A stretch of DNA of 64,000 nucleotides from Bauldia litoralis (lineage in GTDB: Bacteria; Pseudomonadota; Alphaproteobacteria; Rhizobiales; Kaistiaceae), in assembly GCF_900104485.1 (NCBI RefSeq), contig NZ_FMXQ01000003.1, positions 62,001-126,000 on the forward strand. The letters are read 5' to 3'. The notes under the pieces are model-generated. The model was given only the letters and a program-made list of their open reading frames with translations. It was not told the origin of the DNA and ran no database searches. This document shows positions 1,158 through 13,044 of this stretch, piece after piece; within the stretch, counting starts at the first letter, position 1, and every line of letters begins with the position of its first letter. Position numbers and translations under genes: made by a program.

Positions 1158-1823
1158 TCAGGCCGCGGAAACAGCGGTCCCGACCGGACAGGCGACACCG
1201 GTGCCGCCAAGGCCGCAATAGCCGTTGGGATTCTTCGCCAGATACTGCTGGTGATAGTCCTCGGCGAAGTAGAAGGGCGGCATGTCGACGATCTCGGTCG
1301 TGATGGCGCCGTAGCCACGCTCGGCGAGTTTCTCGCCATAGCTTGCCTTCGCCGCTTCGGCCTCTTTGCGTTGCGCGGCGTCGGTCACGTAGATCCCGGA
1401 CCGGTACTGGGTGCCGACGTCATTGCCCTGGCGCATCCCCTGCGTCGGGTCATGCGCCTCGAAGAAGACCCGCAGAAGCTCGGCATAGCTCACCGTCTTC
1501 GGATCGAAGACGACGAAGACCACCTCGTTGTGGCCGGTACGGCCGCTGCAGACCTCGTTGTAGGTCGGGTTGGGCGTCTGGCCGCCGGCGTAGCCGACCG
1601 CGGTGACGTAGACCCCCGGCGTCTGCCAGAACACCCGTTCGGCGCCCCAGAAGCAGCCAAGGCCGAATACCGCCGTTTCCAGTCCGGCGGGATAGGGACC
1701 CTTCAGCGCCTGACCGTTGACGAAGTGGGTCTCCGCGGTCGGGATCGGCTCGGCGCGCCCGGCGAGCGCCGTTTCGGCGGTCGGCATTTCGGATTTCCGG
1801 CTGAAGACATCGAGAATACCCAT
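1158..1823 (-). CDS. msrA: Peptide-methionine (S)-S-oxide reductase MsrA
   Basis: 221 residues. Repairs methionine-S-sulfoxide in oxidised proteins using thioredoxin. The catalytic motif GCFWG is at residues 56-60 (nucleophile Cys57), and downstream come the GYAGG, YHQQYL and C-terminal Cys-containing segments of the family. I start at the ATG at 1823 because AAGGAG sits 6 nt upstream; the open frame runs further to 1904 but that part is not MsrA-like. It is the second gene after the small membrane protein at 1861-2190. It also adjoins the ECF sigma/ChrR stress locus, which fits an oxidative-damage role. Confidence 0.95.
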
Positions 1824-1860
1824 GACCATCTCCTTTTCGAGGTGTTCGCCCGGTCCGACG

Positions 1861-2190
1861 TCAGGCCGCGAACGCCGCCCGCATCCGCCGCTTGCGGCCG
1901 ACATAAAGCAGCCAGGCGCCGAACAGGCCGAGCACCAGCCAGGTCGGCAGCATCAGGATCCACTGGATCAGCGGATCCCAAAGCCAGTGCCCGACATAGG
2001 CTTCGACGGTCTGCTGGATGAAGCCCTGCGCCGCCATCAGGCTCGACGGGCTGATCGAAAACCAGGCCGTTCCGAGCGGAGTCACGGTCAGCGTCGAAGC
2101 CGCGATCGTCTTGGTCCCGTCGACGACCAGCGCGACCAGCGCACCGGCGATCAGCCAGAGTCCAATGAAGCGCGCGATGAAGCCGATCAT
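1861..2190 (-). CDS. Small two-helix membrane protein (PetM-like family)
   Basis: 109 residues. Two hydrophobic segments are visible, about residues 4-24 and 76-97, with a soluble loop between them that contains a short amphipathic stretch ([18 protein letters not shown]). The C-terminus is basic ([12 protein letters not shown]). It matches, from memory, a rhizobial family often labelled PetM/cytochrome b6f subunit 7-like; that label is probably only nominal because no b6f complex is present here. It lies upstream of msrA with 37 nt between them, so the two probably form an operon. Real function unknown. Confidence 0.7.
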
Positions 2191-2291: not shown

Positions 2292-3503
2292 CTAGGCGCG
2301 AAAGCGGAAAAGGCTGACGTCGATCAGGCCGTGTCGGAATCCCGCCTCGCAATAGGACAGGTAATACGCCCAGAGGCGGCGGAAGCGGTCATCGAAGCCC
2401 AGCGGCCTTATATCGTCCCATGCCGCCTCGAACCGACGTCGCCAGTCCGCCAGCGTCAGCGCATAGCTGTCGCCAAAGCCCTGGCGGGTATCCAGGACAA
2501 GCCCGGCGCGGCTGGCTTCGGCTTCGACCCTTGAGATCGTCGGGAGCATGCCGCCGGGAAAGACGTGTCGCTGGATGAAATCCGGGTGGCTGCGATACTG
2601 CTCGAACCGGTCTTCGGAGATGGTGATGACCTGCAGCACCGCGGTGCCGCCCGGCTTCAGCAACTGCCGGAGCCTGCCGAAATAGACCGGCCAATAGCGC
2701 TCGCCAACCGCCTCGAGCATCTCGATCGAGGCAATCCGGTCGAAGCGACCGTCGATGTCCCGGTAATCCTCAAGGCGAAGGTCCGCATGGTTGCCTTCGG
2801 GATGCCCGGCAAGACGATCGCGGGCATAGGCAAGCTGCTCCTTCGACAGGGTGACGCCGACGAATGCCGAGCTCTGTCCGACCAGCCGTTCCGCCAAAGC
2901 GCCCCAGCCGCAGCCGATCTCCAGGATCGATTCGGAACCGGAAAGATCGAGCAGGTCGACGATGCGATCGAGCTTCGCGCCCTGGGCCGCCTCAAGCGTC
3001 GATCCGCCCTCATAGAGGGCCGACGAGTAATTCATCCGGCCGTCGAGCCACTTTTCGTAGAACGCGTTGCCGAGATCGTAGTGGGCCGCGATGTTTCTCC
3101 GGCTGCCACGGCGCGTGTTCGACCGCCTCACGTGCTGGAGGCGATGGCGGAGCGTGGTCAGCCGCGTGGTGCGGGCGCTCGCACCGAATGCGTTTTCGTT
3201 CTCGACAAAGAAATCAAGGAGACCCGGCAGGTCGCCGGTTGTCCATTCGCCGCCGAGATAGCCGTCGGCAAAACCGCGCTCGCCATTCAGAAGGATGCGC
3301 CACAACCCGCGCCAGCGTTGGAAGCTCATGGCGACGGTCCGGCCGGGCGCGGCGCCAACCCGCTCGATCAGCGCGCCATTCGGCAGCGTCAGCCGCAGAC
3401 ATCCGCTTCGCGGTACTGGTATTGCCTTGCCGAGAAGGCGCAGGAGCCCGGGTGTCAGTGACTCGCCCGTGGCGACGTCGGCGGATGTGGTGCGAAGGGT
3501 CAT
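2292..3503 (-). CDS. Cyclopropane-fatty-acyl-phospholipid synthase family protein
   Basis: 403 residues, the full CFA-synthase length. It has an N-terminal lipid-binding domain (about 1-110, with GFADGYLGGEWTTGDL) and a SAM-dependent methyltransferase domain whose glycine-rich motif ILEIGCGWGALAERL is clear. NYSSALYEGG is the usual active-site segment and SIEMLEAVGE follows. These enzymes transfer a methyl or methylene carbon to the double bond of membrane phospholipid acyl chains. It is the third gene of the minus-strand operon FAD oxidoreductase-DUF1365-cfa (4 nt gap) and should be driven by the TGATCC promoter at 5680-5709. In Rhodobacter similar genes belong to the singlet-oxygen regulon and some take part in furan fatty-acid synthesis rather than cyclopropane formation. 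Confidence 0.9.
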   Translation of the reverse strand: MTLRTTSADVATGESLTPGLLRLLGKAIPVPRSGCLRLTLPNGALIERVGAAPGRTVAMSFQRWRGLWRILLNGERGFADGYLGGEWTTGDLPGLLDFFVENENAFGASARTTRLTTLRHRLQHVRRSNTRRGSRRNIAAHYDLGNAFYEKWLDGRMNYSSALYEGGSTLEAAQGAKLDRIVDLLDLSGSESILEIGCGWGALAERLVGQSSAFVGVTLSKEQLAYARDRLAGHPEGNHADLRLEDYRDIDGRFDRIASIEMLEAVGERYWPVYFGRLRQLLKPGGTAVLQVITISEDRFEQYRSHPDFIQRHVFPGGMLPTISRVEAEASRAGLVLDTRQGFGDSYALTLADWRRRFEAAWDDIRPLGFDDRFRRLWAYYLSYCEAGFRHGLIDVSLFRFRA

Positions 3504-3507
3504 GAGA

Positions 3508-4284
3508 CTATTCTGCGGGAGTGAGGGTGGAGGACGGCTTGCGTCGCGATGGGTTGGGATAGACCCGGAACCCCTTGAGGATCATGCGCAGGGCATGCCA
3601 GTGGATCGCCACGATCACCTTGAGCGTGAGCAGTGGGTGGACCGCGAGTTGCCATAACAGCGCACGGTCGGTCAGGTCGACCCGATCGCCCGCCAGCGAC
3701 GCGACGATCAGGGGGCCGTCGCGATCCTCTCCCCGAATCGCGACCGAAACCCGTTCTTCGGGCGGCGCGACGCGAAAGGCGTAGCGCATGTCCATGCCGA
3801 GGAACGGCGAAACGTGGAACACCTTTTCGGCCTGCTGGTGCACGACCGCTTCGTCACCGGCGGCGACCGCTTTCACGTAGGTGTGGCGTTCCCCAAAGGT
3901 GTTGTGGACGTCATAGAGGATCGCGGCGAGCGTGCCGTCGCGCCGATGGCAGAACCAGACGCTGAGCGGATTGAAGCCATAACCGAAGACGCGCGGCATG
4001 CAGAACAGCATCAGCCGACCTCCGTCGAAGGCGATGCCGGCTTCGGCGAGCTTTGCGGTGATCTCGGCGCGTAGCGGGCGACCACTGCCGTCGCCATGGT
4101 CGCGATCGTGGAAACTGACGAGGTTGAACCGATTGCTGGAAAAGAGCCGGAGGCGAGCCGCCAGGCCCTCGATCTCATCGAGGTCGAGCAGCATCCAGAA
4201 GACGCGATAGCGCAAGCGATGCGGGCGCGGTCGCAGCCGGCGATGAATGACCGAACCGACGTAGAGGGCCGAACGCGCGATCAT
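3508..4284 (-). CDS. DUF1365 domain-containing protein
   Basis: 258 residues. The family hallmark PRVFGYGFNPLSVWFCHRRDG and the start SALYVGSVIHRRLRP...FRYRVFW-type region are both present. Function is not established; the gene is almost always found between an FAD/NAD oxidoreductase and a CFA-synthase-like gene, as here, so a role in modifying unsaturated fatty acids is inferred. The chosen ATG overlaps the stop of the upstream oxidoreductase (ATGA), which indicates translational coupling. The frame is open upstream to 4356 but that part lies inside the preceding gene. Confidence 0.88.
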   Translation of the reverse strand: MIARSALYVGSVIHRRLRPRPHRLRYRVFWMLLDLDEIEGLAARLRLFSSNRFNLVSFHDRDHGDGSGRPLRAEITAKLAEAGIAFDGGRLMLFCMPRVFGYGFNPLSVWFCHRRDGTLAAILYDVHNTFGERHTYVKAVAAGDEAVVHQQAEKVFHVSPFLGMDMRYAFRVAPPEERVSVAIRGEDRDGPLIVASLAGDRVDLTDRALLWQLAVHPLLTLKVIVAIHWHALRMILKGFRVYPNPSRRKPSSTLTPAE

Positions 4285-5618
4285 GCCGCGACCCGTTGCG
4301 TCTCGCGTGCCGCGTGGTCGACCTTGATCCGGCCGGACTCGTTGGCCACCCGCCACGGACGGCGAGCGCCACCGAGCGCCTCGGCCACGGCAAGGCCCGC
4401 CTGCAGGCCATCCTCGTGGAAGCCGGCGCCGAAATAGGCACCGCAGAACCAGGTGTTGCGGTCGCCCTGCAGGGACCAGAGCCGATCCTGAGCCGCGATC
4501 GCCGATGCGTCCATTACCGGGTGCTCATAGGTCTCGGTCCGCCAGGCCGAACGCGGCGCTTCGTCGGGGTTGAGGGTGACGAAATACGGCTCCGGTCCGG
4601 GAATCCCCTGCAGTGCGTTCATCCAATAGGTGACTGTCGGCAGCCCTTCAGGCCCGCCGCCCAGATGGTTCCAGCTCGCCCAGGCGGCCCGACGCTTCGG
4701 CATCAGCGTCGGATCGGAGTGGAGGACGGCGGTGTTCTCGCTGTAGCGGAAGGCGCCGAGGACACGTCGTTCCGCCGGCGTCGGCTCTGCCAGCATGGCG
4801 AGCGCCTGGTCGGCATGGGCGGCGATCACCACGTCGTCGAAAGTTTGCGTCGCGCCGGTACAGTCCCGGATACGGACGCTGTCTTCGCCGCGATGGATGG
4901 CGACCACGCCGGCCCCAAGCCGCACCCGGTCGGCATAGCTGGCCGTCAGTTTCTTGACATAGGTCCGGCTGCCGCCCGCGACCGTGCGCCATTGCGGGCG
5001 GTCGCGAAAGCTCAGGAGCCCGTGGTTGTCGAAAAAGCGGACGAAGGCCGCGGCCGGGAAGGCTGCGATCGCTTCGCTCGGCGTCGACCAGATGGCGCCC
5101 GCCATCGGATAGAGATGGTCGCGACGGAAAGCGGTCCCATATCCCTCGTTGTCGAGGTAGGCGCCGAGGGAAATGCCGGACGCGGCGAGCGCTGGAAGAT
5201 CGTTCGGCGCGTTCCGGTAGAAGCGGACAAGGTCGTGCAGCATCGCCCAGAAGCGCGGGCGGGCGAGGTTTCGCTTCTGGGCAAGCAGACCGGCGGCGTT
5301 GTTCCCGGCATATTCGAATCCACCGCGGTCGAGAGACACAGCGAATGACATCTCGGATGCCCGGGTCGGCACGCCAAGGAACGCGAACAGCGCTGTCAGG
5401 TTGGGATAGGTGCGCTCGTTGTAGACGATGAAGCCGGTATCGACCGGCACGTCGCCATTGGCGCTCGGCACGATCGCCGTATTAGAATGCCCGCCGAGCC
5501 GACGGTCGCGCTCATAGACCGTGACGTCGTGGCGTTGGGAAAGGAGCCAGGCTGCGGCCATGCCCGAAATACCGGTGCCGACGACCGCGATCCTCTTCCG
5601 GATGGATGTATCGAGCAT
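4281..5618 (-). CDS. FAD-dependent oxidoreductase (flavin amine oxidase-like)
   Basis: 445 residues. The N-terminus has a Rossmann dinucleotide motif, IAVVGTGISGMAAAWLLS, then ERDRRLGGHSNT, and VDTGFIVYNERTYPNL, as in predicted NAD/FAD-binding proteins linked to CFA-type lipid enzymes. The C-terminal WFCGAYFGAGFHEDGLQAGL is the typical second flavin contact. It is the first gene of the operon with DUF1365 and cfa, and has a TGATCC-N18-TAACGG promoter about 60 nt upstream. The likely job is oxidation/desaturation of a methylated acyl chain; in Rhodobacter the neighbouring homologue is needed for furan fatty acids, but I cannot assign the exact step from sequence alone. Confidence 0.9.
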   Translation of the reverse strand: MLDTSIRKRIAVVGTGISGMAAAWLLSQRHDVTVYERDRRLGGHSNTAIVPSANGDVPVDTGFIVYNERTYPNLTALFAFLGVPTRASEMSFAVSLDRGGFEYAGNNAAGLLAQKRNLARPRFWAMLHDLVRFYRNAPNDLPALAASGISLGAYLDNEGYGTAFRRDHLYPMAGAIWSTPSEAIAAFPAAAFVRFFDNHGLLSFRDRPQWRTVAGGSRTYVKKLTASYADRVRLGAGVVAIHRGEDSVRIRDCTGATQTFDDVVIAAHADQALAMLAEPTPAERRVLGAFRYSENTAVLHSDPTLMPKRRAAWASWNHLGGGPEGLPTVTYWMNALQGIPGPEPYFVTLNPDEAPRSAWRTETYEHPVMDASAIAAQDRLWSLQGDRNTWFCGAYFGAGFHEDGLQAGLAVAEALGGARRPWRVANESGRIKVDHAARETQRVAA

Positions 5619-5679
5619 GCTTGCGGTCCTGGCTTGGCGGCCGGCAGAAAACCCTGCGCGCCGGATGTCTCGTTTCCAA

Positions 5680-5709
5680 CCGTTACGGCTCGGGCATGGA
5701 TTTGGATCA
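5680..5709 (-). promoter_or_regulatory. ECF sigma (RpoE/ChrR-type) promoter of the FAD-DUF1365-cfa operon
   Basis: On the minus strand the -35 box TGATCC (5704-5709) is followed by an 18-nt spacer and TAACGG (5680-5685). TGATCC is the known -35 element of RpoE promoters under ChrR control in Rhodobacter. The match in sequence and spacing to two other promoters in this locus is seen directly; sigma dependence is inferred. Confidence 0.75.
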
Positions 5710-5717
5710 CCGGTGAG

Positions 5718-5747
5718 TGATCCAGATGCCGGCCCGCTGCGTATCCG
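5718..5747 (+). promoter_or_regulatory. ECF sigma autoregulatory promoter of the sigma-chrR operon
   Basis: TGATCC at 5718-5723, an 18-nt spacer, then TATCCG at 5742-5747. Transcription would begin near 5753, giving a leader of about 100 nt before the sigma ATG at 5852. The -35 box lies only 8 bp from the -35 box of the divergent operon, so the two promoters are back to back. Confidence 0.72.
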
Positions 5748-5851
5748 GACTCATGCAGCTCGCAATCGCAGACGAATGGTCGGGAAACTGGAGGACGGAG
5801 CCGGGATGGCGTCATCGCACGCCCGTGCGCACCACCCCCGGCAGGACGGCC

Positions 5852-6421
5852 ATGGGTAAGAGACCCCCGAAACCGGGGCCGAACCCTTCCGACCTGATCG
5901 TGGCCATCGCCCGACACGAGGACAAGGCCGCCTTCGCCGCGCTGTTCGAGCTCTATGCCGGGCGGATCAAGGCATGGCTGATGAGCACCGGGACAAGCGG
6001 CGAACGTGCCGAGGACCTCGCCCAGGAGACCATGCTGACGATCTGGCGGAAGGCGGCGTCCTACGATCCCGCCCGCGCCAACGCTTCCGCCTGGATCTTC
6101 GCGATCGCCCGTAATGCCCGCATCGACCGCTTCCGGCGCGACCGGCGGGCCGAACAACTGCCGGACATCTACGAGCTGATCGAGCCCGGAGAGCCGGACA
6201 AACCGGACGACATGCTCGACGCGGCCGAGCGCGAGCAGCGTGTCCGCCTGGCCATCACAGACCTGTCCGAGGACCAGCTCAGCGTCGTCCGGCTGTCCTT
6301 CTTCGAAGGCCGGCCGCACGGCGAGATCGCCGACCTGCTCGACCTGCCGCTCGGTACCGTCAAGTCGCGGCTCCGCCTCGCCATGAAACGCCTTCGCACC
6401 CTTCTCGGTGACCTGTCATGA
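5852..6421 (+). CDS. rpoE: ECF RNA polymerase sigma factor, RpoE/ChrR pair
   Basis: 189 residues. Region 2 covers roughly residues 15-100 (ALFELYAGRIKAWL, DLAQETMLTIWRKA, WIFAIARNARIDRFRRDRR) and region 4 covers roughly 130-185 (LSFFEGRPHGEIADLLDLPLGTVKSRLR helix-turn-helix). The partner gene is unmistakably chrR-like, which places this factor in the singlet-oxygen-responsive ECF group. The frame is open from 5717, but that start lies inside the promoter, so I use the ATG at 5852. It overlaps chrR by ATGA. Confidence 0.93.
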   Translation: MGKRPPKPGPNPSDLIVAIARHEDKAAFAALFELYAGRIKAWLMSTGTSGERAEDLAQETMLTIWRKAASYDPARANASAWIFAIARNARIDRFRRDRRAEQLPDIYELIEPGEPDKPDDMLDAAEREQRVRLAITDLSEDQLSVVRLSFFEGRPHGEIADLLDLPLGTVKSRLRLAMKRLRTLLGDLS

Positions 6422-7062
6422 CCATTGCCCATCACCCGACCCTTGAGACCCTCGCCGCCTTCGCCGCCGGAACCCTCGACGATGCGCGCGCCCTCGTGGT
6501 CGCCACGCATGTCTCGCTCTGCTCCCATTGTCGTGGCGACGTTCGCGCTTTCGAGCATGTCGGCGGTGTGCTGCTCGATCGCACCCCTCCTGCGGCCATG
6601 CGCGACGACGCGCTGGAACGGGCGCTGGCGGCCATCGGAACGGTCGCGCCGCCGGTGCACGACCGCGCGCCGTCGCTGACCATCGGCGACAAATCGCTGC
6701 CGGCGCCGCTGGCCGGACATCCGCTTGGGCCCTGGCGGTGGATCGGCCGCGGCGTCCAGTGGCGCTCGGTCGGCGTGTCGCCTGTCGACGACACGCGCGT
6801 CCTCATGCTGAAGGCGGCGCCCGGAACCCGATTGCCGCACCATCGGCATAACGGCATCGAATGGACCTGCGTGCTGGAAGGCGCCTTCCGCCACGATCTC
6901 GGGCGGTATGGCCCCGGCGACTTCGATGAGGCGGACGAATCCGTCGAGCACAAGCCGGTGATCGAAGACGGCGACACATGTGTCTGTCTTGTCGCCCTGC
7001 AGGGCGGCATCGCGCTGCAAAGCTGGCTCGGCCGCCTGATCCAGCCCCTCGTGCGCATCTGA
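6418..7062 (+). CDS. chrR: ChrR-family zinc anti-sigma factor
   Basis: 214 residues in two domains. The N-terminal anti-sigma zinc domain has His6, His31, Cys35 and Cys38 (HVSLCSHC), the same four positions known as zinc ligands in Rhodobacter ChrR. The C-terminal cupin domain (about 100-195) carries the second metal site: His142, His144, Glu148 and His178. In the known system ChrR holds RpoE inactive until singlet oxygen or organic hydroperoxide causes its turnover, which needs the cupin domain. It is translationally coupled to the sigma gene by a 4-nt overlap. Confidence 0.95.
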   Translation: MTIAHHPTLETLAAFAAGTLDDARALVVATHVSLCSHCRGDVRAFEHVGGVLLDRTPPAAMRDDALERALAAIGTVAPPVHDRAPSLTIGDKSLPAPLAGHPLGPWRWIGRGVQWRSVGVSPVDDTRVLMLKAAPGTRLPHHRHNGIEWTCVLEGAFRHDLGRYGPGDFDEADESVEHKPVIEDGDTCVCLVALQGGIALQSWLGRLIQPLVRI

Positions 7063-7070
7063 GCGTGGAC

Positions 7071-7922
7071 ATGAGCTTGTCGGCAGCCACCCTGTCTCAC
7101 GCTCGGGACCCGGTCTCGCGGGCGCGCGGAAAAGCGATCGGGCGATCGATTCCCTATGCCAGCGGAGCGCGACGGTCGCTTGATGTCCACGCGCCGGCTA
7201 ATAGCCGCAATGCGCCGGTTGTCCTCTTCTTCTACGGTGGCAGTTGGCAGCACGGCGCCAGGGAGACCTACCGCTTCGTCGCGTCCGCCCTTGCTGCAAA
7301 GGGCTTTGTGGCGATCGTCGCCGACTACCGGGTCTATCCGGAGGTCGGCTATCCCGGCTTCCTTGAAGACGCGGCACTGGCGACCCGTTGGACGCGGGAT
7401 CATGCCGCCGAGTTTGGTGGCGACCCCCGCCGTTTGTTCGTCATGGGCCACTCGGCCGGCGCCTATATCGCCGCCATGCTGGCGCTCGACGCTCGCTGGC
7501 TGGCCTCGGTCGACCTCCACCCCAACGAGACATTTGCCGGGCTGATCGGCATCGCCGGCCCGTATGACTTCCTGCCGCTTCGCGACAAGACCCTGGAGAC
7601 TATCTTCGGCGGCGCCAATCGGCCCGAAACGCAGCCGATCGTGCATGTCTCGGCAGGTGCCCCACCGACTTTCCTCGCAACGGGAACCCGCGACCGCATC
7701 GTCGATCCGGCCAACAGCGACCGCCTCGCACCGCGTCTCGAAGCGGTCGGGAGCCCTGCGACGGTTCGGCGCTATCGCGGTCACGGCCACATGACGATCA
7801 TCGGCGCCCTCGCCTTTCCTCTGCGACTGTTCATGCCGCTGGTCGGCGACATCGCCGATTTCATTGAGGGTCGGGCCGCCGGCTCGCAATTGCGGATCGC
7901 GCCAGCGGAGACCGCGCCGTGA
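7071..7922 (+). CDS. Alpha/beta hydrolase (HSL/kynurenine-formamidase-like)
   Basis: 283 residues, no signal peptide. The oxyanion-hole motif FFYGGSW and nucleophile elbow GHSAG are clear; an Asp (GTRDRIVDP) and a His (RGHGHMTII) near the C-terminus complete a plausible triad. It resembles small cytosolic carboxylesterases. It begins 8 nt after chrR and overlaps the next gene, so it belongs to the sigma operon. A lipase/esterase role in acyl-chain turnover is a guess from context. I reject the longer reading from 6978 because it lies within chrR. Confidence 0.85.
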   Translation: MSLSAATLSHARDPVSRARGKAIGRSIPYASGARRSLDVHAPANSRNAPVVLFFYGGSWQHGARETYRFVASALAAKGFVAIVADYRVYPEVGYPGFLEDAALATRWTRDHAAEFGGDPRRLFVMGHSAGAYIAAMLALDARWLASVDLHPNETFAGLIGIAGPYDFLPLRDKTLETIFGGANRPETQPIVHVSAGAPPTFLATGTRDRIVDPANSDRLAPRLEAVGSPATVRRYRGHGHMTIIGALAFPLRLFMPLVGDIADFIEGRAAGSQLRIAPAETAP

Positions 7923-8746
7923 CCACACCGCAATTCTTCAGCGCCCTTGTCCTCGTTGCCGCCGGCCTGTCGCTGGCGATGGCGGGCTCATGGCTCATCT
8001 GGCGCCGCACCGGCAATTCCGGCTGGGTCGACACGATCTGGTCCTTCGCCGTCGGCGGGGTCGGCATCGCCGGCGCCCTCGCCCCCTTCGTGCTCTACGG
8101 CGAACCGTCTCTCCGCCAGGGGCTGGTGATCGTGCTGGTCGCCGCCTGGGCCCTGCGCCTCGGGTTGCACATCGCCTCACGCTCGGCCGGCGTCGCTGAC
8201 GATCCACGCTATGCGCAACTGGCCCGGGAATGGGGCACCGATGCGCCACGACAGATGTTCTGGCTGGTCCAGAAACAGGCGCTGGTCAGCATCCCGCTCG
8301 CCCTTTCGATTGTGCTCGCCGCATGGAACCCCGTCGGCCTGCGCCTGCAGGATGCACTGGGCGCCGCGGTCCTCGTCATCGGCATCGCCGGCGAGGCGAT
8401 TGCCGACGCTCAGCTTCGCCGTTTTCGCCGCAACACCGAAGACACCAGCCGCGTCTGCGATACTGGCCTGTGGCGGTGGTCGCGCCACCCGAATTACTTC
8501 TTCGAGTGGTTTGGCTGGCTGGCCTATCCGTTGCTGGCGATCGATCTCGGCGGCGCCTATCCGTGGGGCTGGCTGGCGCTCGCCGGACCGGCCTGCATGT
8601 ACTGGCTTCTCGTCCACATCTCGGGCATCCCGCCGCTTGAAGCTCACATGCTGGCGCGGCGCGGCGATGCCTTCCGCGCCTACCAGGCGCGCACCAGCGC
8701 CTTCTTTCCCCTGCCGCCGCGCACCAAGTCAGGAGTTGTCGCATGA
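7919..8746 (+). CDS. DUF1295 membrane protein (steroid 5-alpha-reductase-like)
   Basis: 275 residues with about six hydrophobic segments. The C-terminal region carries the conserved signature of the isoprenylcysteine methyltransferase / steroid reductase fold: DTGLWRWSRHPNYFFEWFGW followed by GIPPLEAHMLARRGDAFRAYQ. Members are membrane-bound enzymes of unknown substrate and are regular companions of CFA-like genes in ChrR-type operons. It starts at GTG, overlapping the stop of the hydrolase (GTGA), and overlaps the next gene by ATGA, so the operon is tightly coupled. Confidence 0.9.
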   Translation: MTTPQFFSALVLVAAGLSLAMAGSWLIWRRTGNSGWVDTIWSFAVGGVGIAGALAPFVLYGEPSLRQGLVIVLVAAWALRLGLHIASRSAGVADDPRYAQLAREWGTDAPRQMFWLVQKQALVSIPLALSIVLAAWNPVGLRLQDALGAAVLVIGIAGEAIADAQLRRFRRNTEDTSRVCDTGLWRWSRHPNYFFEWFGWLAYPLLAIDLGGAYPWGWLALAGPACMYWLLVHISGIPPLEAHMLARRGDAFRAYQARTSAFFPLPPRTKSGVVA

Positions 8747-9771
8747 GCCTCGTCGAAGCCGTCACCTATGCCGGTGAACGATTCCCCTGGCCGGACCCGA
8801 TGACCCGAACGGCGATCGCCCGTCTGGTCTCCAGGACCGGTGAACGGTTGTCCACGACGAGCCCTGACGCCGATCGGCGCTTTGCCGAGGACATGGGCAG
8901 CTACCCGATCGCCCTCCACACCGATGCAGCCAACGCGCAGCATTACGAGATCCCGGCGGCCTTCTTCGACCTGGCGCTGGGGCCGCAGCGGAAATATTCG
9001 TGCTGTCTCTATGACGACGGAGCAACGACACTGGCCGAGGCGGAAGAGGCGGCGCTGGCGGCAACCGCCGACCATGCCGACCTGCACGACGGGCAGCGCA
9101 TTCTCGAACTCGGTTGCGGCTGGGGTTCGCTCAGCTTGTGGATGGCGCGACGCTACCCGAACGCCCGGATCACCGCCGTTTCCAACTCCGCGTCGCAGCG
9201 CGCCCATATCACCTGCATCGCCAACGCGGAGGGCCTCCGCAACCTCGACGTGGTGACCGCCGACATGAACGTGTTCACGCCGGCAGAGCCGTTCGACCGC
9301 ATTGTCTCGGTCGAAATGTTCGAGCACATGGCCAACTGGCGACCGCTGCTCGAGCGCCTGCGCGATGGACTGGTCTCCGACGGGCGCCTCTTCATCCACG
9401 TCTTCACCCACCGAAACGGATCCTACAGGTTCCGCACCGAAGATCGCGACGACTGGATCGCCAGGCACTTTTTCACCGGCGGCATCATGCCGAGCCAACG
9501 ACTGATCCGGGAATTTGCCGACTGCTTCACGGTGACCGACGAATGGCGCTGGTCGGGCGAAAACTACCGCCGCACCGCCGACGACTGGCTCGCCAATTAC
9601 GACCGGAACATCGAGGCCATTCGCCCCATCCTCAGGGGAACCTACGGCCGCGAGGCGCGCCTCTGGGAACGCCGCTGGCGGCTTTTCTTCCTGGCAACCA
9701 GCGGCCTGTTCGGACATAGCGACGGGACCGAGTGGGGTGTCAGCCACTACCGGCTGAAGCCGGCACGATAG
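8743..9771 (+). CDS. SAM-dependent methyltransferase, cyclopropane-synthase-like (short form)
   Basis: 342 residues, about 60 shorter than the CFA homologue at 2292-3503. It lacks the N-terminal lipid-binding domain and starts close to the methyltransferase core. The motifs RKYSCCLYDDGATTLAEAEE, ILELGCGWGSLSLWMA, SVEMFEHMANW and HVFTHRNGSYRF place it in the branch that also includes plant coclaurine N-methyltransferase-like proteins. The operon ends here; a 14-bp GC palindrome (9771-9784) follows. With the other CFA-like enzyme this gives two different acyl methylases in one regulon. Confidence 0.9.
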   Translation: MSLVEAVTYAGERFPWPDPMTRTAIARLVSRTGERLSTTSPDADRRFAEDMGSYPIALHTDAANAQHYEIPAAFFDLALGPQRKYSCCLYDDGATTLAEAEEAALAATADHADLHDGQRILELGCGWGSLSLWMARRYPNARITAVSNSASQRAHITCIANAEGLRNLDVVTADMNVFTPAEPFDRIVSVEMFEHMANWRPLLERLRDGLVSDGRLFIHVFTHRNGSYRFRTEDRDDWIARHFFTGGIMPSQRLIREFADCFTVTDEWRWSGENYRRTADDWLANYDRNIEAIRPILRGTYGREARLWERRWRLFFLATSGLFGHSDGTEWGVSHYRLKPAR

Positions 9772-9793
9772 CCCCCGCGGGGGCGTCGACGCT

Positions 9794-10213
9794 TCAGGAA
9801 GCGCCGGCGAGCCAGCCGGAGACGGCGCGGGTCGCCAGGAAGGCAAGCACCGCGGTGACCGCCGAGGCGGCTGCGCCATAGACGATGTCGACGACCGTGA
9901 TTTGCACCGACCAGACGCGCAGCGTGGCGAAATTGGTCAGGTCGTAGGTGGCGTAGGCCAACGCGCCGAACAGAAGGCCATAGCCCACCGCCGGGAAAAA
10001 GCTATCCGCCCGCAACGCCGGCATGACGGCGAAGACGGCGATCCCGACCGGATAAGCCAGATAGAAAATGATGGCCGGCATCAGGCGGACCTTGTCGGCC
10101 AGCAGATCGCCAAGCGTCGCCCGGTAGAGCGCGGCGCCCATCGTGCTCAGCCAGACGGCATCGAGCGCTGCGAAGGCGAGAAGGGATACGCCATAGGCGA
10201 CGACATAGATCAT
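9794..10213 (-). CDS. DUF2177 family membrane protein
   Basis: 139 residues, four predicted transmembrane helices, with the family features LDAVWLSTMGAALYR and GLLFGALAYATYDLTNFATLR. Function unknown, but homologues sit with CFA/RpoE-ChrR genes in other alphaproteobacteria. I start at the ATG at 10213, where AAAGAG lies upstream; the open frame beyond it to 10408 is not protein-like and contains the promoter. Its own TGATCC-N18-TATCGA promoter makes it a third unit of the same regulon. Confidence 0.88.
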   Translation of the reverse strand: MIYVVAYGVSLLAFAALDAVWLSTMGAALYRATLGDLLADKVRLMPAIIFYLAYPVGIAVFAVMPALRADSFFPAVGYGLLFGALAYATYDLTNFATLRVWSVQITVVDIVYGAAASAVTAVLAFLATRAVSGWLAGAS

Positions 10214-10250
10214 GGGCTTGCTCTTTCGGGCTGACATCGAGGTGGTGCTC

Positions 10251-10280
10251 TCGATACGCACCGCAATGGCGTCCGGATCA
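10251..10280 (-). promoter_or_regulatory. ECF sigma promoter of the DUF2177 gene
   Basis: Minus strand: -35 TGATCC at 10275-10280, 18-nt spacer, -10 TATCGA at 10251-10256, about 38 nt before the ATG. It is the third copy of the same -35 box and spacing within 5 kb, each placed correctly for a gene of the cluster. Confidence 0.72.
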
Positions 10281-10443
10281 CCCGCGCCCCGTCCCGGCGC
10301 CCCCTCCACCGCAGGGCACCAATTCCCGGTGGCCGAAATGCCGGATTGATAACCGCGCGCCGTCCGCCATAATTGTGTCAACACTCCCGGGGCACTCTTG
10401 CGAGGCACTCTGGAGCAACAAGAACTGGGTGGGAGGGTCTGTC

Positions 10444-11319
10444 ATGTGGAAGACACGCGCGTCGCTGGTCGCCGTCATGCTGTTGTCGGCGCCGGTACTC
10501 GGCCCGTCGGCGATGGCCGCCGACGAGGATATCGGCATCGTCCGGGAAAAGGCCGGAAGCCTGCCCCATGACGAGGCGCTGAAGCTTCTTGGCGAAACGC
10601 TCGGCGGCAGCATCGAGGCAACCCAGTCCGATCCCAGCATCCCCGACATCCTTTCGGCGCTGGAGACGAATATCGAGGCAACCCGGCAGATTCGCGAGAT
10701 GGTGGACGGCGCCGAGACGGTGACCGAAGAGCAGATCGCCGACGTTGCCAGCCGGATCTCGACGATCGCCAAGTCGTTCGAATCGATCGCCAGGCTCGCG
10801 CCCGACGTCTTCGAGCGGCGCTATGCCGAACTCTCCGACATCGACGCCATCGGCCAGGAGATCGGCTTTCGCATCGCCGACGCCAACAGCCGGCTGGCCG
10901 CGCTCCGCCAGGGCAACGAGGAGATCGACGGCTATGTCCGCGCCGAAACCCTGTCGCATGGGGAGATCGAGAAACTTCGCCTGACCCGCCAGGCCAACGA
11001 CGCCGAAATCCACAGCCTCGAAGCGGCCGTCGCGGCCTGGGGCTATTTCTCGGAGCGCCATACCGACGTGATGACCCGGCTCGGCGACCAGTCCGAGAAT
11101 CTCGATATCTTCTTCCATGCACTGCGCGAAAACGCCCGCGTCTATGCCGCCGCCGCCAGCACCCTCAACATGGCGAGTTCCCTGAAGACGGCGCTCTCGG
11201 ACCTCGGCAGCGTCGAGAATCTCGACTCGCTCCGCTCGGAGATGGTTCGGTCATGGACCGACCTGATGAAGATCGTCGACGAGGTCAACGACGGGCTGCG
11301 CCTGCAGCCCGGCATGTAG
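10444..11319 (+). CDS. Exported coiled-coil protein, unknown function
   Basis: 291 residues. A clean signal peptide (MWKTRASLVAVMLL to AMAA) is followed by an almost entirely helical, Glu/Ala/Leu-rich protein with heptad-like stretches at about 60-130 and 160-215 and no Cys. I recognise no enzyme motif. GGGAGGG lies 6 nt before the ATG; an earlier in-frame start at 10375 would spoil the signal peptide. The next gene follows after 3 nt, so the two are probably made together and may form an envelope complex. Confidence 0.75.
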   Translation: MWKTRASLVAVMLLSAPVLGPSAMAADEDIGIVREKAGSLPHDEALKLLGETLGGSIEATQSDPSIPDILSALETNIEATRQIREMVDGAETVTEEQIADVASRISTIAKSFESIARLAPDVFERRYAELSDIDAIGQEIGFRIADANSRLAALRQGNEEIDGYVRAETLSHGEIEKLRLTRQANDAEIHSLEAAVAAWGYFSERHTDVMTRLGDQSENLDIFFHALRENARVYAAAASTLNMASSLKTALSDLGSVENLDSLRSEMVRSWTDLMKIVDEVNDGLRLQPGM

Positions 11320-12175: not shown

Positions 12176-13044
12176 GCCGCGTAGCGGCTGGCGTCCGGGC
12201 CGTAATAGTTGATGTAGCGGGTGTTGATCCGCTCGAGCGGCAGCACGATGAAGACGTCGGTGGTGCCGAACTGCCAGTCGACGACCGCTTCCTCGCAGAT
12301 ATAGGCGCCGAGCCGCAGGTAGCCCTTGATCAGCGGCGGCAGCTCGCGCAACACCTTGATGCCGTTGACCGGCTCGGCGGACATCGCATCGAGCGGCACC
12401 CCGCGCCCCGGGAGCGCCTTGACGCGCCACTCCTCCGGCGTCGGCGCATAGCTGCGCAGGAAGCCGAGCAGCGGCGCCAGCCGGCGCGGGTCGGTTCCCT
12501 CAAGCGACGCACACCCGATCATCACGTCGATGTCGTTGCGCCGGACATAGCTCCAGATGCCGTGCCAGAGCAGTTCGACCGTCCGCTTCGTCCGGTAGGG
12601 CTTGAGAACGCAGGAGCGCCCGAGTTCGAGGAAGGATCGCCCGGCATGGCGGTCGATCAGCGGCGCGACCTGGAACTCGCCCGAGGAATAGAAGCCCTTC
12701 CGCCGTTCGGCGATCTCCTGCCGCAGCAGCCGGTACGTCCCGACGATCTCCGGTCCCTCCGGGGCATCGTGGTCGAGGACCAGAAGATGGTCGCAGATCT
12801 TGTCATAGGGATCGGCATCGCGGCCAAAGAAGGCGGCGCGCGCATTGGCAACGGCCGACATCTCCTCGTAAAAGACGCGATAGCGGAGTCGTTGCGCCTG
12901 CTTGACCTCTTCGGACGAACGGGCGAGCCGCACCTCGAGGCTGCCGATACGTCCCAGCGAAGCGGCCGATTGGTCGAAACGCCGCCATGCCATCCGCATC
13001 ATGCCGCCGGTCAGGCGCTGTGGCATCAGGGGCACGTATACCAT
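12172..13044 (-). CDS. olsB: L-ornithine N(alpha)-acyltransferase OlsB
   Basis: 290 residues, normal family length. OlsB transfers a 3-hydroxyacyl chain from acyl carrier protein to ornithine, giving lyso-ornithine lipid, a phosphorus-free membrane lipid. The hemolysin-like GNAT signature is present: RYRVFYEEM, DHLLVLD, GTYRLLRQE, ELGRSCVLKPYR, IGCASLEGTDP and PLIKGYLRLGA. GGGAG lies upstream of the ATG at 13044. No olsA neighbour is visible, so the second acylation gene must lie elsewhere. The 216 bp between this start and the kinase gene should hold its promoter; a long AT-richer stretch there (13110-13150) is a candidate. Confidence 0.88.
   Translation of the reverse strand: MVYVPLMPQRLTGGMMRMAWRRFDQSAASLGRIGSLEVRLARSSEEVKQAQRLRYRVFYEEMSAVANARAAFFGRDADPYDKICDHLLVLDHDAPEGPEIVGTYRLLRQEIAERRKGFYSSGEFQVAPLIDRHAGRSFLELGRSCVLKPYRTKRTVELLWHGIWSYVRRNDIDVMIGCASLEGTDPRRLAPLLGFLRSYAPTPEEWRVKALPGRGVPLDAMSAEPVNGIKVLRELPPLIKGYLRLGAYICEEAVVDWQFGTTDVFIVLPLERINTRYINYYGPDASRYAA

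What the first reader, a model, noticed from the sequence alone, without database searches (positions are those of the whole stretch)
2292..10280. Self-contained RpoE-ChrR photo-oxidative stress regulon with three matching promoters
Sigma factor, ChrR with His6/His31/Cys35/Cys38, and all three transcription units carry TGATCC with exactly 18 bp to a TA-starting -10 (TAACGG, TATCCG, TATCGA). Eight adjacent genes are thus placed under one ECF factor. TGATCC as RpoE -35 and ChrR's role are known from Rhodobacter; extension to this organism is inferred.
Basis: partly seen in the sequence, partly recalled or inferred. Interest (0 to 1): 0.72.

Follow-up and report, generated by a model that had tools for sequence, protein, structure and literature searches.

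The report
ECF11–ChrR furan-fatty-acid stress locus
This stretch holds a known type of bacterial alarm switch (a sigma factor held back by the zinc protein ChrR) beside what looks like the complete set of genes for making protective furan fats, all under matching promoters; it is real and well supported, but it also seems to reach a heat-shock sigma factor elsewhere in the genome, so it is not self-contained.

Summary
All three transcription units start with GTGATCC-N16-CGTA, the ECF11 consensus found by ChIP-seq in Pseudomonas syringae. The 5.09-Mb genome has exactly three perfect copies, all in this locus at the right places, and relatives keep them at the same genes. Nine genes are covered, not eight. 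Three match the furan-fatty-acid operon in the order known from Rhodopseudomonas palustris: ufaD, ufaO (DUF1365), ufaM. The sigma operon continues into an alpha/beta hydrolase, DUF1295 and a second methylase, probably FufM, which makes dimethyl-furan fatty acids. DUF2177 has its own promoter.

"Self-contained" is not supported: a one-mismatch motif copy lies 70 bp upstream of the genome's second rpoH, as in the RpoE-RpoHII cascade of Rhodobacter. A same-genus relative with chrR has a perfect copy there; one without chrR has none. The host shows no photosynthetic reaction centre.

Beyond the textbook: the ufaD and sigE promoters lie back to back, with -35 boxes 8 bp apart; and DUF1365, DUF1295, DUF2177 and both methylase types recur among published singlet-oxygen-induced Chlamydomonas genes, suggesting an ancient shared module. 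New member of a known kind; expression and lipid products are inferred, not shown.

The parts
2292..3503 (-). ufaM candidate: SAM-dependent fatty-acyl methylase (CMAS family, 403 aa)
   Evidence: Pfam CMAS 257 bits; third gene of a ufaD-ufaO-ufaM operon, the order of RPA2571-2569 in R. palustris; same order in most relatives
3508..4284 (-). ufaO candidate: DUF1365 (UfaO-type oxygenase family)
   Evidence: Pfam DUF1365 273 bits; only DUF1365 gene in the genome; start codon overlaps ufaD stop; DUF1365 = UfaO per PMC7380195
4281..5618 (-). ufaD candidate: FAD/NAD-binding amine-oxidase-fold desaturase
   Evidence: Pfam Amino_oxidase/NAD_binding_8; position and class match UfaD
5684..5710 (-). ECF11 promoter of ufaDOM: GTGATCC-N16-CGTA
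   Evidence: conserved at the ufaD start in relatives
5704..5723 (.). Back-to-back -35 boxes of the two divergent promoters (GGATCA-CCGGTGAG-TGATCC), 8 bp apart
   Evidence: gaps of 4-7 bp in four close relatives, 42-63 bp in seven others
5717..5743 (+). ECF11 promoter of the sigE-chrR operon: GTGATCC-N16-CGTA
   Evidence: conserved upstream of sigE in nearly all relatives examined
5852..6421 (+). sigE: ECF11 sigma factor (189 aa)
   Evidence: best PDB match R. sphaeroides RpoE 2q1z_A, 132 bits; sigma-70 regions 2 and 4
6418..7062 (+). chrR: zinc-binding anti-sigma factor with cupin-like sensor domain
   Evidence: TIGR02451 200 bits, cut-off 124.5; R. sphaeroides ChrR 2z2s_B 130 bits; all eight zinc ligands conserved; only copy over the cut-off in the genome
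7071..7922 (+). alpha/beta hydrolase (BD-FAE/Abhydrolase_3), third gene of the sigE-chrR operon
   Evidence: present in this operon position in close relatives
7919..8746 (+). DUF1295 membrane protein (steroid-5-alpha-reductase-like)
   Evidence: Pfam DUF1295 198 bits, weaker Steroid_dh match; overlapping start/stop codons
8743..9771 (+). fufM candidate: short CMAS-family methylase (342 aa)
   Evidence: closest solved structure is plant coclaurine N-methyltransferase (213 bits) against 90 bits for a CFA synthase; 29% to the local UfaM
9771..9784 (.). G+C palindrome GCCCCCGCGGGGGC between the convergent fufM and DUF2177 genes; possible shared transcript end
   Evidence: sequence; no T run, so only suggestive
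9794..10213 (-). DUF2177 small membrane protein
   Evidence: Pfam 134 bits; co-occurs with chrR in 27 of 36 chrR+ against 2 of 25 chrR- genomes
10255..10281 (-). ECF11 promoter of DUF2177: GTGATCC-N16-CGTA
   Evidence: conserved before DUF2177 in L001, L028, L030, L036, L039 and, at a different place in the locus, L002-L004

Best explanation
The locus is an ECF11 sigma factor-ChrR switch with its conserved lipid-protection regulon in a probably non-phototrophic Hyphomicrobiales-like bacterium. Without stress, ChrR (zinc anti-sigma domain plus zinc cupin sensor domain) holds SigE inactive. Singlet oxygen or derived lipid peroxides cause ChrR to be degraded; free SigE-RNA polymerase starts at GTGATCC-N16-CGTA promoters, amplifies its own operon and turns on UfaM, UfaD and UfaO, which convert cis-vaccenoyl chains in phospholipids to a monomethyl furan fatty acid; FufM then adds the second methyl. 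DUF1295, DUF2177 and the hydrolase act on the same membrane-lipid problem by unknown steps. SigE also starts the second rpoH, which would carry the response to many further genes. Shown: gene identities at family level, zinc ligands, promoter motifs, their genome-wide rarity and conservation. Inferred from relatives: ChrR release by singlet oxygen, transcription from the sites, the lipid products, the RpoH cascade.
For: Family and structure matches for SigE and ChrR; eight zinc ligands conserved. Motif identical to the P. syringae ECF11 ChIP-seq consensus TGATCC-N16-CGTA. Three perfect genome copies, all here. Footprint at sigE, ufaD and DUF2177 in relatives although spacers and gene order differ; background of >=9/10 matches is 4 in 903,000 positions, 10/10 none. 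ufaDOM order equals the gene set proven to make 9M5-FuFA in R. palustris. Overlapping genes in both operons. rpoH2 site.
Against: No expression, start-site or lipid data exist for this organism. The FufM assignment is indirect: the RPA0924 sequence was not in hand. UfaM, UfaD and UfaO identity to the R. sphaeroides enzymes was not measured directly; they are assigned by family and operon order. Some ECF11 systems are reported for superoxide, peroxide or metals, so singlet oxygen is the likeliest, not the proven, signal.
Confidence: 0.87

Rival explanations
1. One reading: a self-contained regulon, in which SigE drives only the genes of this locus.
For: The only three perfect motif copies in the genome are here; nearly all looser matches elsewhere lie inside candidate reading frames.
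Against: GTGATCC-N16-CGTT lies 70 bp upstream of the second rpoH; chance of a one-mismatch copy in a given 300-bp sense window is about 0.0014. Same-genus G002 (chrR+) has a 10/10 copy there, same-genus G003 (chrR-) none; 8 of 21 chrR+ against 0 of 9 chrR- genomes carry one (one-sided Fisher 0.035, two-sided 0.067, not corrected for kinship).
Confidence: 0.15
2. The ChrR switch here answers mainly to another stress (organic peroxide, superoxide, cadmium or UV) and not to singlet oxygen.
For: The best NCBIfam equivalog-type hit is a cadmium/peroxide/UV-responsive ChrR model, although below its cut-off (235 of 300 bits); the S. maltophilia homologue concerns superoxide (title and abstract); no reaction-centre gene in this genome.
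Against: The furan-fatty-acid genes, tied to the singlet-oxygen response in R. sphaeroides, are the main targets; the non-phototroph P. syringae also responds to singlet oxygen through this system. These signals are not exclusive.
Confidence: 0.25
3. The palindrome between ufaD and sigE is an operator for a dimeric regulator, not two promoters.
For: GGATCAC-N6-GTGATCC is a good inverted repeat.
Against: The gap between half sites varies from 4 to 8 bp in close relatives and 42-63 bp in others, which a dimer would not tolerate; each half is followed at 16 bp by CGTA; the same half stands alone before DUF2177.
Confidence: 0.04
4. The second methylase (8743-9771) is not FufM but another CMAS/coclaurine-type methylase acting on a different lipid or on an amine.
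For: Its closest solved structures are plant N-methyltransferases; FufM sequence itself not compared.
Against: FufM is 38% identical to Arabidopsis AT4G33110/LIME1, and FufM differs strongly from UfaM (26% identity), as here (29%); it sits in the sigma operon beside a complete UfaM/D/O set.
Confidence: 0.25

Closest known systems
R. sphaeroides RpoE (RSP_1092)-ChrR (RSP_1093) ECF11 system and its core regulon
   Same: Sigma/anti-sigma pair, zinc ligands, promoter class, ufaD-ufaO (RSP1091-1090) and ufaM (RSP2144) as targets, second rpoH as apparent target
   Different: Here ufaM lies with ufaD-ufaO; RSP1087-1089 and a linked photolyase are absent; hydrolase, DUF1295 and FufM candidate are in the sigma operon and DUF2177 has its own promoter
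R. palustris furan-fatty-acid genes RPA2571-2569 (ufaD, ufaO, ufaM) and fufM RPA0924
   Same: Same order ufaD-ufaO-ufaM, plus a fufM-like gene
   Different: In R. palustris fufM bears a distant locus number; here the candidate is in the sigE-chrR operon
P. syringae PSPTO_1043/1042 (ECF11-ChrR)
   Same: Identical promoter consensus TGATCC-N16-CGTA; non-phototroph
   Different: Its targets are scattered and include phrB, katG and others; no rpoH cascade discussed in the passages read
Chlamydomonas SAK1-dependent singlet-oxygen genes
   Same: CFA1, CFA2 (also annotated coclaurine N-methyltransferase), DUF1365, DUF2177, DUF1295 and MSRA3 are induced together
   Different: Eukaryotic nuclear genes with an unrelated regulator; orthology not tested

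Membership tests
ECF11 sigma factor-ChrR pair | Sigma factor most like R. sphaeroides RpoE | tested here: met
   2q1z_A best of all solved structures, 132 bits against 72 for the next
ECF11 sigma factor-ChrR pair | ChrR in the same operon with zinc anti-sigma motif His6/His31/Cys35/Cys38 | tested here: met
   chrR start overlaps sigE stop
ECF11 sigma factor-ChrR pair | Cupin-like domain with second zinc site (His, His, Glu, His) | tested here: met
   His142, His144, Glu148, His178 align to 141/143/147/177
ECF11 sigma factor-ChrR pair | Target promoters TGATCC-N16-CGTA, including its own | tested here: met
ECF11 sigma factor-ChrR pair | ChrR degraded and sigma released by singlet oxygen | not testable with these tools
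   needs cells
Furan-fatty-acid pathway (UfaM/UfaD/UfaO) | All three enzyme families present in one operon in the known order | tested here: met
Furan-fatty-acid pathway (UfaM/UfaD/UfaO) | Product 9M5-FuFA in phospholipids | not testable with these tools
   needs GC-MS
FufM (dimethyl-furan methylase) | Closer to RPA0924 than to CFA synthase or UfaM | tested here: inconclusive
   RPA0924 sequence not available; indirect link through plant homologues
RpoE-RpoHII cascade | ECF11 promoter before a second rpoH | tested here: met
   9/10 match at -70; dependence on SigE not tested
ECF11 core regulon as defined in R. sphaeroides (rpoE, chrR, RSP1087, 1088, 1090, 1091, phrB, cfaS) | All eight members present at the locus or with the motif | tested here: not met
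   No short-chain dehydrogenase (RSP1087) or lipoprotein (RSP1088) gene among the nine at the locus; a photolyase exists at C16:365281 but no TGATCC site lies in the 3.6 kb around it. The locus is a subset plus other members, not the full core set.

The most novel reading that the evidence does not exclude
UfaM, UfaD, UfaO, FufM, DUF1295 and DUF2177 form one ancient singlet-oxygen membrane module, shared by ECF11 proteobacteria and green algae under unrelated regulators. DUF1295, a relative of steroid 5-alpha-reductases, would reduce the reactive ene-diones left when furan fatty acids trap singlet oxygen, and DUF2177 would assist in the membrane. This would give functions to two uncharacterised families and explain why they travel with ChrR.
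Probability: 0.25. Interest if true: 0.65.

Novelty: new member of a known kind. Interest (0 to 1): 0.42.

Why it matters
It shows an ECF11-ChrR switch controlling what looks like a whole dimethyl-furan-fatty-acid pathway from one 8-kb locus in a probably non-phototrophic bacterium, with a simple test by GC-MS. It ties DUF1295 and DUF2177 to singlet-oxygen defence by operon, promoter, co-occurrence and published algal expression data, so their function becomes directly testable. The back-to-back promoters raise a clean question: do two polymerases with the same sigma factor exclude each other there?

Tried and rejected
1) Other genome-wide matches of the loose motif as further targets: all but one of the 19 lie inside candidate reading frames; the exception (C15:297041) has no clear gene of its own. 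2) One-mismatch hits before other genes (DnaJ-like C7:393807, cobalamin adenosyltransferase-like C7:461398, PAS protein C7:708353, LysR-type C13:51889, aminotransferase C14:71952, ABC transporter C17:377509; names are my reading of the translations): sites break the CGTA or TGATCC core or sit at unconvincing distance; not tested in relatives, so left open. 3) Photolyase as a target, as in Rhodobacter: gene present, no motif. 4) Regulator-operator reading of the palindrome: rejected. 5) Sigma-70-type promoters: the one match found in the region is before 10375, none at the three units. 7) The 2008 core-regulon paper is not in the library; its content is taken from later papers. 8) No structure prediction was run; it would not separate FufM from its sister families.

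Full report
What is there. The window lies at G000:C17:62001-126000 of a 5.09-Mb genome. The nearest named relatives of its ChrR are in a Bradyrhizobiaceae MAG (63%), Chelatococcus and Pseudochelatococcus (44-47%), so the host is probably a member of the Hyphomicrobiales; its name was not established. Between 2292 and 10281 there are nine genes in three units. Minus strand: ufaD (4281-5618), ufaO/DUF1365 (3508-4284), ufaM (2292-3503). Plus strand: sigE (5852-6421), chrR (6418-7062), alpha/beta hydrolase (7071-7922), DUF1295 (7919-8746), second CMAS methylase (8743-9771). Minus strand again: DUF2177 (9794-10213). Families are; the codon overlaps that suggest tight operons are.

The promoters. 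All three units are preceded by GTGATCC-N16-CGTA. The loose form has 22 genome hits; all but one of the 19 outside the locus fall inside candidate reading frames. The full form has exactly three perfect hits in the genome, all here; about 1.5 would be expected by chance anywhere in the genome, judged from 48 one-mismatch hits over 33 possible single changes. The motif equals the consensus found by ChIP-seq for the P. syringae ECF11 factor (PMC5507510). In 26 related loci the motif recurs upstream of sigE in nearly all, upstream of ufaD in many, and upstream of DUF2177 in eight, including L002-L004 where DUF2177 sits elsewhere and points the other way. On reversed control sequence, matches of 9/10 or better occur 4 times in 903,000 positions and 10/10 never.

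The switch. SigE is closest to R. sphaeroides RpoE among all solved structures. ChrR scores 200 bits against TIGR02451 (cut-off 124.5), aligns over its length to the solved ChrR, and keeps both zinc sites. It is the only gene over that cut-off in the genome. No photosynthetic reaction-centre gene (PF00124) was found in the genome, so singlet oxygen would come from elsewhere than bacterial photosynthesis.

The pathway. In R. sphaeroides and R. palustris UfaM methylates vaccenoyl chains, UfaD (FAD/NAD-binding) desaturates, UfaO (DUF1365) inserts oxygen from O2 to close the furan, and in R. palustris FufM adds a second methyl (PMC7380195). RPA2571-2569 have the order ufaD-ufaO-ufaM, as here. The only DUF1365 gene of the genome is this one. 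The second methylase is closest to plant coclaurine N-methyltransferases (213 bits) and far from CFA synthases (90 bits); FufM is 38% identical to the Arabidopsis protein AT4G33110 (PMC10940516) and 26% to UfaM, and the local pair is 29%. This fits FufM but was not tested against RPA0924 itself. The genome has two other full-length CMAS genes (C15:100882, C7:536557), which can serve ordinary cyclopropane synthesis.

Not self-contained. Three rpoH-like genes were found. The second (C7:406109-406969) has GTGATCC-N16-CGTT 70 bp upstream. In R. sphaeroides rpoHII transcription depends absolutely on RpoE, and most singlet-oxygen genes follow from it (PMC6852236). In relatives, a 9/10 or 10/10 site within 150 bp of this gene occurs in 8 of 21 chrR-positive and 0 of 9 chrR-negative genomes (one-sided Fisher 0.035, two-sided 0.067, kinship not corrected). 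The matched pair in the same genus is telling: G002 with chrR has 10/10, G003 without chrR has none. The site is absent in G007 and in the related genus g9, so the link is not universal.

Back-to-back promoters. The -35 boxes of ufaD and sigE are 8 bp apart here and 4-7 bp apart in L001, L028, L029 and L030, but 42-63 bp apart in seven other relatives. In the distant G030 a similar pair (6 bp gap, each 9/10) stands between ufaD and DUF2177. Two holoenzymes could hardly sit there at once, so the sigma operon and the furan operon may compete for each SigE-polymerase. This is inference from geometry.

DUF1295 and DUF2177. DUF2177 occurs in 27 of 36 genomes with chrR and 2 of 25 without (Fisher 2e-7); strong DUF1295 matches in 17 of 36 against 1 of 25 (2e-4). 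Kinship inflates these values. Away from chrR, the motif is found before DUF1295 in G043 (10/10) and before DUF2177 in G037 and G030 (9/10), not in G012, G018, G034, G055 or G060, and not in the three chrR-negative genomes looked at. Neither family is in the R. sphaeroides core list as quoted in PMC5507510. In Chlamydomonas the SAK1-dependent singlet-oxygen genes include CFA1, CFA2 (elsewhere in the same paper called coclaurine N-methyltransferase), DUF1365, DUF2177, DUF1295, MSRA3 and a fasciclin-like protein (PMC4067076). Only that paper in the library mentions both DUFs, and the passages read draw no link between the DUF families and furan fatty acids. A relative of this locus (L029) has the motif before a fasciclin-domain gene and before a MAPEG gene. 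The parallel suggests an old shared module; orthology of the algal genes was not tested. The proposed DUF1295 role (reducing ene-diones from oxidised furans) rests on its Steroid_dh resemblance and on general knowledge of furan-singlet oxygen chemistry, and is a guess to be tested.

Verdict. A true, well-supported ECF11-ChrR locus. Ordinary in kind, with a fuller furan-fatty-acid gene set, a probable rpoH branch, an unusual promoter geometry and two uncharacterised families worth testing.

Noticed in passing
1158-1904 (-) and 1861-2190 (-): A methionine sulfoxide reductase A gene follows a small ORF about 100 bp downstream of ufaM on the same strand, with no terminator-like site found between; read-through from the furan operon is possible. 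An MsrA gene is also singlet-oxygen-induced in Chlamydomonas. Not syntenic in the relatives examined.
   Followed up: partly
L029 (G004), reverse-complement coordinates 3178-3714 (-) and 12329-12769 (+): Two further perfect ECF11 motifs in a same-genus relative stand before a fasciclin-domain protein and a MAPEG-family membrane protein: likely extended regulon members.
   Followed up: partly
L148 (G030:C2:54500-56600), about 1190-1250: Back-to-back ECF11-like promoters between ufaD and DUF2177 in a 1.4-Mb genome of another family of the order; the divergent ufaD-DUF2177 pair in chrR-negative G054 lacks such sites.
   Followed up: partly
10375-11319 (+): Divergent neighbour of DUF2177: 314-aa ORF with no confident family match (one sub-cut-off Pfam hit), and a sigma-70-like promoter at 10346-10373.
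   Followed up: no
G001 and G003 (same genus as the window): Two of four same-genus genomes lack chrR and DUF2177 and have only weak or divergent DUF1295 matches; gain or loss of the whole module within one genus.
   Followed up: no
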